From NCBI GenBank assembly GCA_025766275.1, contig JAFKAC010000035.1, positions 124,001 to 188,000 of the forward strand: DNA of 64,000 nucleotides. Reading direction: 5' to 3'. Shown here in pieces: positions 4,786-27,547 of the stretch (its first letter is position 1; each line of letters begins with the position of its first letter). Source of the DNA: Lactarius indigo (taxonomy: Eukaryota; Basidiomycota; Agaricomycetes; Russulales; Russulaceae). The notes under the pieces were generated by a model, which did no database searches, was not told the DNA's origin, and saw nothing but the letters and a program-made list of their open reading frames with translations. The translations under genes were made by a program, and so were the position numbers.

Positions 4786-4872
4786 CCGAAACTCTGGAGT
4801 CATACTTGCTTGATGCTTTGCTGGCGCGACGTAATGCGTGACCGATAGTCACGATGTCACGTGATCGTGACA
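4786..4872 (-). repeat. Remnant of element X 3' LTR
   Basis: These 87 bp match 27461-27547 with few differences (for example GCGTAATGCG here, GCGTAACGCG there). The rest of the 3' LTR lies beyond Ty3-1, outside the window. The polypurine tract directly to the right fixes it as the 3' LTR. Confidence 0.85.
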
Positions 4873-4909
4873 TAACCCCCCTTCTAGGTTCATTCGTCCG
4901 CGAATGTCT
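4873..4909 (-). promoter_or_regulatory. Element X polypurine tract with upstream hairpin
   Basis: Read on the minus strand, a 6-bp stem (CATTCG / CGAATG, loop CGGA, 4891-4906) follows four bases after the stop codon of the long frame. Then comes a purine run with six Gs ending at the LTR. The run is the expected plus-strand primer. The same stem-loop-plus-purine layout occurs internally at 23414-23448 and, with another stem, at the end of Ty3-3. Confidence 0.65.
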
Positions 4910-7146
4910 TTAAGGGCTTCGATCGACAGCTTCCCAATCGACGTCATACGGGTAATCGTAGTCGTCTACTGGTTGGTCGTCAAGCGCGGTGCGGCGTCGT
5001 CGGCGTCGGGGGTGCACGGTTGGTTGGATTGCTCGGGTGGGGGAGAGTGTGTCGCATACCCATGTACGGGTACGTTCGCCAGCAGATGGAGTCGTCGATG
5101 CAGGGCATTGGAGTCCGTAATAGGGATGGCGAGGGGGAACGGGACAACGTCGCTGCGGGGTACACCGAGTGTGGGGTTGGCGGCAGAAGGCCTTAGTGTG
5201 TCCGACACCGTGGCAATGGCGGCAATGATAGGTGTTGGTTCGTGTGCCGCGGCGGTCGTTACGTTGTCCTTGGGTTGGCGTCGGGTGGTGATCGTCAACG
5301 AGGTCGATTACGACTGGTGGACGTTGTCGCACTTCGGGCTCCGGTTCGTTAGAGGTGGTTGGTTGCGCGCTACCTCGTGGTGTAGCAAGAGATACGTCGT
5401 GGTCTGGGTCAGGATTTGTCACGGTCAGTCGTCGTGGCGTTGTCTCGGTCGTGGGTTCACGACTGGGGGTCGAACGGTGTTGGTTTCGTGCGTGGCATCG
5501 GCGATGAGTGTCCTCGTTGTTAGTACGTGAAGAACGACTTCGCGGGACCTGTAACGGAGAATGAGCGACTAAGCCGATGTTTAGAAGTTCCCTCCAGCAT
5601 AGGGCTTCGACCCTAGGGAACTCCCATTGTTGTGCTAATCGAAGGATTAGCGTCCATTCTCGAGTAGTCGCCTCGTACACCGAGTAGTCCGAGTTATAGA
5701 AGACCCATAGGAGTAGTTCGAACTCCTCGGTCGTCACCTCGTTGAGCGCGACATAGTATGGTCCCGCGGTGGTGTTGTTCTCGACTGGGATCGGTCCATC
5801 GTCGCTAAGATCGATGGGCGTTTCTGTCGTAGATCCCGCGATTTTCCAAAGTCGTCGGAAATAAGGTGATTCGCGTGTGAAGAAGTAACTGTGAACATGA
5901 AACGTGCAATCGTTCGTTTCGAACGTAGCGTCTGCATTCACTAGGTCGTATAGATGGTGTCGGCGATGGACGTTCGTCTTTGAATTGGCATGGGGTGATG
6001 CTCCGTCCTGGTCGTCGTCTGCGTTTCCCTGGATACGGCTTTCAGTTGTGCTGTCGTGGTCCTGAGCGATGATGGGTCGCCCTAGTTCATCAGGGCCTTC
6101 GGCGGTAGGAGGTGGCGATGGCGCTGATGTCGGGCGAGTATGTCTCCCTTTGTTGGTCGGGAGACGATCAGGGGCTGTGTGTCCGTCATCGGATTTGAAC
6201 ATCCATTGGGCAGGGAGCTGGTCAGCCGTGATAGTTGTAGTCGGTGTGGGGTGTTCGTCCATCGTCAGGGAATTTGTGGCGATGGGATTGATTTCTGACT
6301 GTACTCGTTTCTTATGTTGTGCGAGTCGTGCTGTTGTTTGGGCATTATCTAGGGGTTTCGCCCTATTGTGCATGGTGGAGCGTCCCTTCCGCCGTATCAG
6401 AGATAGCAGTGTCTTCTTCTTGACTCGTGGTTGATGGTTGAAAATTTTCTCGTTATCTTGTTTGGTGTTTTCCAAGATTGGCTGGGGTAGGGATTGTTCC
6501 TTTTGGTTTCTGAGGGTACCGACTGTATGACCGGGGATGAGCAATCTTCCATGGAACGTGTCGTGGGTTCCCCCCCAGTCTGGGGAACATGTCTTATCCA
6601 CAATATGAGGCGGTTCACATAGTCGCGGTATGGGTTCGCCATACGCCGTCCGATGGTTTCTGATTAATCCTTCTCCACTCGTCATAATCGATGAGAGATC
6701 TCTGCGGAGTGTGTTCCGCATCGCAAGACCTTTGTTGCTTGTTCGCGAGATGATGGGTGTTTGCTGACGTGTCGAGGGTATGGAACTCATGAGTATCTTG
6801 TATGTAGACGGTTGTGTGTCATGGGAGGGTCGCGTTACTAGTAATTGTGTTGTACGTTCGTTATACCGTCGATGGTTGGCGCGAGCATTGAGATATTGCA
6901 CTCGTCGTCGTTTCGGACCTTTTTGTCGATCGTTGGTGCACGAGCGATGCGTCGAATTATTATTTTGTTTGATGTTTGGTGGAGTGTAGGGGACACATAT
7001 GAGTGCTGTGGTAACGTGTGGATCTCGCTTGGACGGTATCTCGTTCGACAGTTCGTAGCGTAGTGGTATACGGTCACTGGTCACGTTCGTCATTCTTTCG
7101 ATGCCACAGTTTTCTTTTGTCAGTATGATGACCCTGATTTTAGAAT
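4910..7146 (-). CDS. Element X long frame, C-terminal part: BTB/POZ domain and zinc knuckle
   Basis: This is the downstream 745 codons of the X frame. It continues in frame from 23140 once the copia insertion and one AGAAT copy (together 15993 bp, a multiple of three) are removed. The upstream half is basic and low in complexity. A BTB/POZ domain follows at roughly residues 1620-1745 of the joined protein (about 5950-5570; FETNDCTFHVHSYFF ... EEFELLLWVFY ... WTLILRLAQQWEF). It resembles the BTB proteins that are abundant in mushrooms. Then come a SUMO-interaction-like motif VVIDLVDD (about 5320) and a CCHC knuckle C-x2-C-x4-H-x4-C (CRHCHGVGHTKAFC, about 5240-5180). The C-terminus is acidic (DYDYPYDVDWEAVD). 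The knuckle suggests RNA binding like a Gag nucleocapsid; the function of the BTB part is unknown. Confidence 0.72.
7142..7146. repeat. Target-site duplication AGAAT left of copia
   Basis: AGAAT precedes the copia 5' LTR and recurs at 23135-23139 directly after the 3' LTR. Copia integration normally makes 5-bp duplications. Joining the flanks restores the element X frame. Confidence 0.9.
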
Positions 7147-7578
7147 TGTTGAAGGAGAGTGCGCTCACGCGCGCGACACCTCGGCGTCGGGAGTCGGCCG
7201 CATCTCACGTGCGGATGGAAGTACACCCTGGAGGTGTGACGGTAGTAGAGCCGAGATGTATGGACTCGTATGGAACACATTCATTTGTTATTTACTTTAC
7301 TTTACGACTTAGTTACAACCAATCTGTGATCGGGGACAACCCCTGTGCTTTCTCGGTTGAGACTTTTACTATACAACTATGCCCGTTATGCCCGAGCACG
7401 TATTCACGTGTATTCACACTCTTTACGCAGTATTTATTCGCGCATTGTATGCACTGGCACTCCAGAATCTTACGTTTCTTCTGGTGTGCCAGGCAAGTAG
7501 TCTTACACTCGTTCAATGACTAGAATCTTACGTTTCTTCTGGTGTGCCAGACATAATTTCACTCGCTGCGGTTTATTA
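7147..7578 (+). repeat. Copia 5' LTR (432 bp)
   Basis: It starts TGTTGAAGG and ends TTTATTA, followed at once by the primer-binding site. It matches 22703-23134 over its full length. It contains an internal direct repeat around 7464-7490 and 7520-7552 (ATCTTACGTTTCTTCTGGTG twice). Confidence 0.93.
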
Positions 7579-7590
7579 GGTTATGGGCCC
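7579..7590 (+). promoter_or_regulatory. Copia primer-binding site (half-tRNA type)
   Basis: GGTTATGGGCCC directly follows the LTR. It is complementary to the anticodon stem-loop of initiator tRNA-Met as I remember it (GGGCCCAUAACC), not to a tRNA 3' end. Drosophila copia uses a similar internal site with a cleaved tRNA half. The tRNA comparison is from memory. Confidence 0.6.
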
Positions 7591-26812: not shown

Positions 26813-27110
26813 CGTGATTCGGTTTCGTGGGGACGCGTTACGCCTCGTCCAGTGGCAACAGGGTTCCGGGTTTCGTTGGTGACTCGCAGTGTCGATCGTA
26901 CTGAGTGTCGGTGTGCTATGCGTCCACTCGGGACTTGTTACGCGCACGGTTCTGGTTTCAGGGAACGCTTTTCGCCTCGTTCTGCGGCAATCAGGGTTCG
27001 CGCGTGCAGGGAGAATCGATCGTCCTTTCCTACAGCAACTCGAGGTTCAGGCTATCGGGGAGATCGATTGTCTCGTCCCGTAGTTCGTGAGAACGATTTG
27101 CGCCTCGCTC
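26630..27110. repeat. Degenerate 22-bp motif repeated in the element X leader and early frame
   Basis: Five copies of a motif like GGGGACGCGTTTCGCCTCGT start near 26631, 26765, 26830, 26962 and 27087, at irregular spacing. The last two lie in the leader upstream of the ATG, the others inside the frame. No function can be read from it. Confidence 0.5.
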
Positions 27111-27126
27111 GTGGCAGGGTAAGAGG

Positions 27127-27137
27127 TCTACTCTTAT
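27127..27137 (-). promoter_or_regulatory. Element X self-primer binding site
   Basis: TAAGAGTAGAC on the minus strand directly follows the 5' LTR. Its exact 11-nt complement GTCTACTCTTA begins at 27342 in the LTR, 35 nt downstream of the start of a TATAAG box at 27377. Same logic as the gypsy copies, but with a different 11-mer. Confidence 0.72.
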
Positions 27138-27547
27138 GTTACGGTTCCGAGGGACCGTACGTTGACTGAGTCACGTGGAGCTGAGCTCAACACGTTGTGT
27201 AGAGTCGGGACTCGTGTTTTAGCACAAGTCAAGATTCGGGGAGTTCTAGGCTCAACTCAAAGAGTATCGCTAGAGAGAGGGGAGAGCACGCGGGGTTCTG
27301 AGACAAGGCAAGCTAGGTCGGATTCAAGAACTAAGAGTAGACAACCAAAAGTACTACTCAGACAGCTACTACTTATACTCTTACAGACTATTGGTTTTCG
27401 TGACTATTTTCTCAATGAGCACCATAAGGCGTGCTTATTAGCACTGTCAGTCGTGCTATTCCGAAACTCTGGAGTCATACTTGCTTGATGCTTTGCTGGC
27501 GCGACGTAACGCGTGACCGATAGTCACGATGTCACGTGATCGTGACA
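27138..27547 (-). repeat. Element X 5' LTR (410 bp)
   Basis: Runs from TGTCACGATC to CCGTAACA on the minus strand. The outer 87 bp match 4786-4872. It contains the TATAAG box and the self-primer complement. Its right edge abuts Ty3-2 integrase sequence. Confidence 0.85.

What the first reader, a model, noticed from the sequence alone, without database searches (positions are those of the whole stretch)
4786..27547. Element X: an LTR retrotransposon whose only product is a giant BTB/POZ and zinc-knuckle protein
Once the copia insertion is removed, an LTR-flanked interior of about 6.3 kb is filled by one uninterrupted frame of 1970 codons. It has a BTB domain, a SUMO-interaction-like motif and a CCHC knuckle, and no pol motifs. 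It has a primer-binding site and a polypurine tract, so it is built like a mobile element. An element carrying a host-like BTB domain could tether particles to host factors or to cullin-3 ligases. That role is inference; the architecture is seen.
Basis: partly seen in the sequence, partly recalled or inferred. Interest (0 to 1): 0.9.

Follow-up and report, generated by a model that had tools for sequence, protein, structure and literature searches.

The report
Parasitic retrotransposon carrying a BTB protein
A jumping element in a mushroom genome has lost its copying enzymes but still keeps their 1,600-codon message free of stop signals, while only a host-like BTB and zinc-finger tail is clearly preserved as protein, which suggests that being translated matters more to it than what is translated.

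Summary
Element X is a multicopy LTR retrotransposon in what is very probably Lactarius indigo. Its LTR is 411 bp, not 88: another gypsy sits in its 3' LTR and a copia splits its frame. It has a 5-bp target duplication, a Tf1-type self-primer and a polypurine tract. "No pol" is wrong: the frame is a decayed gag-pol, colinear with intact gypsy relatives in the same genome that share LTR ends and self-primer; most catalytic residues are lost. X is a non-autonomous derivative, presumably mobilised by them. Its BTB domain is of a mushroom host family, in a tail whose terminal zinc domain the relatives share. Unexpectedly, about 1,600 codons of dead gag-pol are open in six copies (15-28% nucleotide differences, five compared), with dN/dS close to off-frame values, while the BTB is under clear purifying selection. 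Some 20-38 stops are expected per pair of five open copies; none is found; 50 of 61 indels are multiples of three. Many other copies hold stops; the few dated with several stops have older LTRs. Best reading: selection keeps the message translatable (to reach the tail, or to escape nonsense-mediated decay), not its sequence. What the BTB-zinc protein does is inferred.

The parts
27137..27547 (-). 5' LTR of element X (411 bp, TG...CA)
   Evidence: alignment with LTRs of related copies; bounds; partner at C221:120674-120997 plus 4786-4872
27332..27342 (-). self-primer sequence (GTCTACTCTTA) inside the LTR
27126..27136 (-). primer-binding site TAAGAGTAGAC directly after the 5' LTR, complementary to the self-primer
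23140..27046 (-). first part of the open frame: decayed gag-pol; one candidate start ATG at 26810-26812 (the same ITMHR context in 4 of 7 other X frames searched)
23558..25165 (-). stretch within which the frame matches reverse transcriptase and RNase H of gypsy relatives (31-37% identity)
   Evidence: catalytic residues of other X copies
4910..7146 (-). second part of the open frame (decayed integrase and chromodomain region, then tail); stop codon at 4910-4912
4913..6262 (-). BTB-zinc tail (450 codons) from Met 'MDEHP'; its BTB and zinc parts are under purifying selection
5582..5962 (-). BTB/POZ domain
   Evidence: Pfam PF00651; position; tree
5183..5224 (-). CX2CX4HX4C zinc knuckle of the tail, present in the relatives too
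4873..4885 (-). polypurine tract AGAAGGGGGGTTA before the 3' LTR
4786..4872 (-). first 87 bp of the 3' LTR; the rest lies left of the window behind an inserted gypsy element
7147..23134 (+). copia element inserted in the frame (with further insertions inside it), duplication AGAAT
1..4785 (-). part of another gypsy element inserted in the 3' LTR of X, duplication CCGAA

Best explanation
Element X is a non-autonomous derivative of a Tf1/sushi-like (chromodomain) Ty3/Gypsy element. Shown: it has LTRs like those of family members with intact enzymes, the self-primer and the polypurine tract, but its RT, RNase H and integrase have lost most of the residues they need; several copies with near-identical LTRs show recent insertion. 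Shown: across copies the ~1,600-codon gag-pol remnant behaves as unconstrained or nearly unconstrained protein yet stays open in the younger copies, while BTB and zinc tail are under purifying selection. Inferred: intact relatives copy it in trans; X RNA must be translatable end to end, either because the tail is made as the C-terminus of one long product or because ribosomes running the whole frame spare the RNA from nonsense-mediated decay; the tail dimerises through BTB and binds nucleic acid through its zinc domain, in the place where relatives carry their own tail with the same terminal zinc domain.
For: Multicopy. LTR pairs 438/438, 388/389, 436/439, 389/389, 390/391 in the open copies L040, L041, L042, L044, L045. 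LTR ends and self-primer shared with relatives L033-L038. L033 is a complete Gypsy polyprotein: RVT_1 6.6e-30, RNase H 2.5e-27, integrase H2C2, SH3_Tf2-1, Chromo, gag, CCHC. X copies match L033 over much of gag-pol at 24-29%, best E 9e-84; 0 of 6 keep the RT YxDD, the RNase H triad or the integrase triad. dN/dS upstream 0.61-0.86 in frame, 0.59-0.96 in the two off-frames (20 of 21 pairs; blocks of at least 60 nt and 60% identity); BTB 0.09-0.38 (18 of 21 pairs); relatives 0.04-0.25 in every computable window. 19.7-38.0 stops expected per pair, 0 seen, 10 pairs of 5 copies; 50 of 61 indels multiples of three. Control, 15 pairs of 6 open copies: CGA faces TGA 0 of 1172 times, CGC/CGG/CGT their T form 90 of 1367; CAA+CAG 0 of 1486, CAC+CAT 117 of 1265; off-frame CGA 208 of 2809. 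Copies with several stops that could be dated have lower LTR identity: C226b 391/408, C20 389/405, C261 393/405 (stops).
Against: The stop and codon tests used copies chosen for being open. In a wider look, 11 of 14 held copies have 0-1 stops upstream and 3 have 13-20, but these 14 are mostly the best-scoring copies; at least eleven further places (C20, C67, C79, C136, C220, C237, C242, C259, C261, C287 near 29-33 kb, C290) were not counted whole, and or one search shows stops in all of them. C253 has identical LTRs (437/437) yet one in-frame TGA, and C284 has 278/278 and one TAG. C219 has low LTR identity (93% over 137 bases) but 0 stops in its 1352 upstream residues. In-frame dN/dS is below both off-frames in 9 of 20 pairs, above both in 2, and lower in some windows (codons 201-400: 0.45 against 0.76-1.15), so weak protein constraint is not excluded. 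Copies recombine, and pairs and indels are not independent. Trans-mobilisation, expression and protein function were not observed.
Confidence: 0.7

Rival explanations
1. X encodes a working giant protein whose N-terminal 1,600 residues are a fast-evolving disordered region (charge or composition selected), fused to the BTB-zinc tail.
For: Frame and length (2004-2077 codons) are kept in six copies; codons 201-500 and 1101-1200 show lower in-frame dN/dS than both off-frames; Arg and Thr are frequent.
Against: Overall dN/dS is close to the off-frame control; the residual homology is to enzymes whose sites are lost.
Confidence: 0.2
2. The frame is open only because the copies died recently or because gene conversion from intact elements keeps renewing it.
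For: Copies are mosaics: upstream and tail divergences differ strongly between the same pairs.
Against: All six tabulated X copies lack most catalytic residues, and 631-1247 substitutions separate each of ten pairs upstream without a stop, where comparable harmless C/T changes number 90 of 1367. Matches of the X frame to relatives with intact frames were 24-38%, save one 34-residue stretch at 50%.
Confidence: 0.06
3. X is a host gene (domesticated BTB gene) that happens to be flanked by LTRs.
For: The BTB domain is of a host family.
Against: Many copies at unrelated sites; LTR pairs, five-base duplications, self-primer and polypurine tract in those inspected.
Confidence: 0.02
4. X is autonomous with an unrecognised, working polymerase.
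For: Recent copies exist.
Against: RT YxDD, RNase H and integrase acidic residues are lost or differ among copies and the region shows little or no protein constraint.
Confidence: 0.02

Closest known systems
Tf1/sushi (chromovirus) Ty3/Gypsy LTR retrotransposons
   Same: single long frame, self-priming by an LTR sequence pairing with the primer site, SH3_Tf2-1 and chromodomain in relative L033; Tf1 and Tf2 each have one ORF and self-prime (PMC7175516, passages read)
   Different: X has lost its enzymes; a tail of about 450 codons follows the chromodomain position, in X with a BTB domain
Non-autonomous LTR retrotransposons (LARD, TRIM, BARE-2, Cassandra; definitions recalled)
   Same: cis signals kept, enzymes presumably supplied in trans by relatives
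   Different: LARD/TRIM interiors are non-coding; X keeps a 2,000-codon frame and a selected accessory protein
Defective-interfering RNAs of coronaviruses and arteriviruses
   Same: works alike: defective genome kept translatable; [quoted passage not shown] paper not read)
   Different: an integrated retroelement in a fungus; no relation by descent; a counter-example exists among coronaviruses (defective RNAs lacking a long frame; reference title seen)
Agaricomycete BTB/POZ proteins (e.g. P0005 Heterobasidion, P0006 Vararia, P0008 and P0009 Lactifluus)
   Same: shared BTB pattern, about 34-43% identity
   Different: X BTBs form one clade with an extra 13-residue stretch, joined to an element-derived zinc tail

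Membership tests
LTR retrotransposon | paired LTRs with TG...CA ends | tested here: met
LTR retrotransposon | target-site duplication | tested here: met
   TCATG around X; five-base duplications read by eye at L033, L034, L035, L037, L038, L040, L041, L042
LTR retrotransposon | primer site and polypurine tract | tested here: met
Tf1/sushi group of Ty3/Gypsy | self-primer complementarity | tested here: met
   (sequence only): the pair is seen in the window and in all 13 loci L033-L045; L046, whose held stretch has no 5' LTR, shows only the LTR part
Tf1/sushi group of Ty3/Gypsy | homologous gag-pol order | tested here: met
   colinear matches to L033
autonomous Ty3/Gypsy element | intact RT, RNase H and integrase sites | tested here: not met
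   0 of 6 copies; the alignment is uncertain at this divergence
autonomous Ty3/Gypsy element | chromodomain detectable in X | tested here: not met
   Pfam at E up to 1 finds only BTB in L042
LARD (large non-coding derivative; definition recalled) | interior without coding frame | tested here: not met
   2004-2077-codon frames in 6 copies
BTB/POZ domain proteins | Pfam BTB above cut-off | tested here: met
cullin-3 adaptor | cullin-3 binding | not testable with these tools
   structure prediction unavailable; no significant solved-structure match

The most novel reading that the evidence does not exclude
A lineage of parasitic LTR retrotransposons is under selection for being translated, not for the sequence translated: some 1,600 codons of dead polyprotein are kept free of stops while drifting near-neutrally, so that a captured host BTB domain joined to a zinc tail is made, or so that the RNA escapes nonsense-mediated decay. 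It would be a retrotransposon counterpart of defective-interfering RNAs that need an open frame.
Probability: 0.53. Interest if true: 0.82.

Novelty: new variant of a known kind. Interest (0 to 1): 0.62.

Why it matters
Non-autonomous LTR elements are usually taken to need only cis signals (recalled view). Here copies that no longer make enzymes still seem filtered for an open frame, which makes testable what a retrotransposon RNA needs in order to be mobilised in trans (translation, RNA stability, or a cis-made accessory protein). It also gives a case of a host-type BTB domain captured by an LTR element and kept by selection on the element.

Tried and rejected
Rejected: 88-bp LTRs (a truncated 3' LTR). 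Rejected: 'no pol'. Considered as a counter-example and set aside: the L046-type copies (465-codon BTB-zinc frame behind a stop). Their near-identity runs through a 1000-base query that starts at the end of the frame and goes past the start of the LTR (9 places at 99-100%), and 4 upstream matches lie 266 bases from a contig start, so they look spread by duplication of larger blocks (subtelomeric, inferred), not by transposition. Compensated frameshifts as extra evidence: little there; 185-765 of 4266-4534 aligned bases per pair are in a different frame, and among stretches of at least 60 bases and 65% identity only the first ~40 codons and two short stretches of L044 are. Amino-acid composition test: uninformative. 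Splicing to the tail start: a CAG lies upstream in the copies printed, not pursued. Distribution of the relatives' tail: no hit, but candidates are limited in length, so polyproteins could not appear. LTR pair of C242: none found. Print: searches (listings only; one search held no paper) listed no paper whose title or abstract start describes a BTB-bearing LTR retrotransposon or an open but unconstrained dead frame; the library lacks most subscription journals.

Partial counts: one search stopped after 18 of 21 pairs and after 20 of 21 (script errors). One search used 5 of 7 copies because a tail pattern was not found in the other two. One search used 6 of 7.
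Full report
What is there. The window is C221:124001-188000 of a 90.3-Mb genome. Two annotated proteins that match the X tail or its BTB domain carry contig lengths (638,320 and 2,397,822) equal to contigs C220 and C259 here and are labelled Lactarius indigo, so the species is very probably L. indigo (inference). Element X lies on the minus strand from 27547 leftwards. Its 5' LTR is 27137-27547. The 3' LTR begins at 4872, is cut at 4786 by another gypsy element (duplication CCGAA), and resumes outside the window at C221:120997-120674 (99% of 324 bp). 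The whole element is flanked by TCATG. A copia element (7147-23134, duplication AGAAT) splits its frame. The primer site TAAGAGTAGAC follows the LTR directly and pairs with GTCTACTCTTA inside the LTR. The same pair is found in all 13 loci L033-L045; L046, whose 5' LTR is not in the stretch held, shows the LTR part only. This is the self-priming layout described for Tf1 and relatives (PMC7175516 and PMC6317226, passages read). A polypurine tract precedes the 3' LTR.

Copies. Searches with each half of the frame gave 92 and 110 matching stretches (stretches, not elements). Six copies have one uninterrupted frame: L039 2077, L040 2022, L041 2004, L042 2023, L044 2068, L045 2043 codons. LTR pairs: L040 438/438, L041 388/389, L042 436/439, L044 389/389, L045 390/391; C253 437/437; C284 278/278 over the part aligned; C226b 391/408; for C219 only a 137-base stretch aligned, at 93%; C20 389/405 and C261 393/405; no pair found for C242. 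L039 has its 3' LTR interrupted.

It is a decayed Gypsy. Weaker matches of the X frame led to relatives with intact frames (L033, L035, L036, L037; 2092-2127 codons). L033 holds gag, CCHC, protease, RVT_1, RNase H, integrase zinc domain, SH3_Tf2-1 and chromodomain, then a tail of 476 codons. LTR ends and self-primer are shared with X. X copies align with L033 colinearly; the gag-pol stretches have 24-29% identity over 238-1089 residues, E from 6e-25 to 9e-84, leaving out one 34-residue stretch of E=1.4e-4. At 15 catalytic or zinc-ligand positions of protease, RT, RNase H and integrase, the four relatives agree save one cell, whereas 0 of 6 X copies keep the RT YxDD motif, the RNase H triad or the integrase acidic triad whole; single residues survive (the protease D in 4 of 6, the integrase H pair in 6 of 6; alignment uncertain at this divergence). 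Pfam itself sees in the window's first half only sub-threshold matches, the best RNase H at E=0.0055. The tail's CCHC is kept in 6 of 6 X copies and 4 of 4 relatives.

Selection. In the BTB domain dN/dS is 0.09-0.38 (18 of 21 pairs) and after it 0.26-0.64. In the gag-pol remnant it is 0.61-0.86 in frame, against 0.59-0.96 when the same DNA is read in the two wrong frames (20 of 21 pairs; only ungapped blocks of at least 60 bases and 60% identity). It lies below both wrong frames in 9 of those 20 pairs and above both in 2, so weak constraint is not excluded. In the relatives, in-frame values are 0.04-0.25 in the 16 windows of 22 where they could be computed and the wrong frames give 1.1-5.5. 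In X the remnant's windows give 0.45-1.03 in frame and 0.48-1.18 off frame. Still, the remnant has no stop in frame over 1,550 codons in the copies chosen, against 46-70 in the other sense frames and 33-82 in the antisense frames (seven X frames, of which L043b is a partial one that runs into its tail). From the observed substitution spectrum 19.7-38.0 stops are expected per pair; none is seen in 10 pairs of 5 copies (14.6-28.3% nucleotide differences); 50 of 61 well-flanked indels are multiples of three, shared indels counted more than once. Codon control, 15 pairs of 6 copies: CGA faces TGA 0 of 1172 times, while CGC/CGG/CGT face their T form 90 of 1367; CAA and CAG 0 of 1486 against 117 of 1265 for CAC and CAT; in the wrong frames CGA faces TGA 208 of 2809 times.

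Limits of that test. These copies were chosen for being open, so zero stops is partly a condition; the point is that several such diverged frames should not exist without selection. Among 14 held copies, open or not, the upstream part has 0 or 1 stop in 11 and 13-20 stops in 3 (C250 covers only 492 residues). The 14 are mostly the best-scoring ones: at least eleven further places (C20, C67, C79, C136, C220, C237, C242, C259, C261, C287 near 29-33 kb, C290) were not counted whole, and or one search shows stops in all of them. Where LTR age could be set against stops, copies with several stops are older (C226b 95.8%, C20 96.0%, C261 97.0%) and open ones younger (99.3-100%), which fits stops gained after insertion. 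Exceptions: C253 (LTRs identical, one in-frame TGA), C284 (278/278, one TAG), and C219 (93% over 137 bases, 0 stops in 1352 upstream residues).

The tail. A Met (MDEHP and variants) opens the tail in 6 of 6 X copies and in the three relatives printed; L037 shows MNRHPP at the same place. Two L. indigo gene models begin at that Met. The BTB domain is related to ordinary BTB proteins of mushrooms; X BTBs form one clade (support 1.0) on a long branch. No BTB-bearing frame belongs to L033-L038, so the BTB lineage seems confined to enzyme-less elements (not all frames were examined). The terminal zinc domain is shared with the relatives' tail, so the middle of the tail was probably exchanged for a BTB domain (inference).

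Mechanism. Shown: cis signals, dead enzymes, recent copies, open but little or unconstrained frame, constrained tail. Inferred: helper relatives supply Gag and enzymes (one search lists many intact tails and frames of over 2,000 codons). The need for openness is best explained by translation of the whole RNA, either to make the tail at the end of one product or to keep the RNA from nonsense-mediated decay; the present data do not tell these apart. The tail is probably a dimerising nucleic-acid-binding protein acting on the element's own RNA or on host chromatin; a cullin-3 role is possible and untested.

Novelty. The parts are known kinds: Tf1-like Gypsy, non-autonomous derivative, host-domain capture. 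The combination and the selection signature did not appear in six listing-only searches of the held library. The nearest behaviour is that of defective-interfering RNAs that need translation but not a given sequence (title seen in a reference list).

Noticed in passing
L033, L035, L036, L037; Gypsy relatives carry about 470-480 conserved codons after the chromodomain, ending in a CCHC plus further Cys/His; in L033 Pfam at E up to 1 covers none of the middle of this tail, and no homolog of fitting length was found.
   Followed up: partly
C269, C90, C267, C238, C250, C268 (L046, L050): A 465-codon BTB-zinc frame is repeated at 97-100% identity inside larger duplicated blocks; related upstream matches in C24, C143, C247 and C281 lie 266 bases from the contig start, which suggests subtelomeric spread.
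   Followed up: partly
window 4786 and L039 about 648: In two X copies (C221, C225) the 3' LTR is interrupted at almost the same position by different sequence; possibly an insertion hot spot.
   Followed up: partly
L040 interior 1-1800; The first 1.8 kb of the X interior is about 84-94% identical among copies, against mostly 76-85% further on; possible packaging or other cis signals, or homogenisation.
   Followed up: no
L040 interior 4051-4650; About 600 bases of the L040 interior hardly align with any of the other five X copies; replaced or strongly diverged, yet the frame stays open.
   Followed up: partly
window 19480-21454: Inside the copia element, its RT frame is split by a stretch with a 496-codon minus-strand frame, next to a run of Phe codons at the break, probably a non-LTR retroposon; Pfam finds nothing in that frame.
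   Followed up: no
C259:870021-887529 and C126:1621-14153; Clusters of host-like BTB matches, apparently tandem arrays, weakly similar to the element's BTB.
   Followed up: no
L033 codons 1-165: The relatives show purifying selection over about 160 codons before their first in-frame Met, which suggests a non-AUG start or a spliced leader.
   Followed up: no
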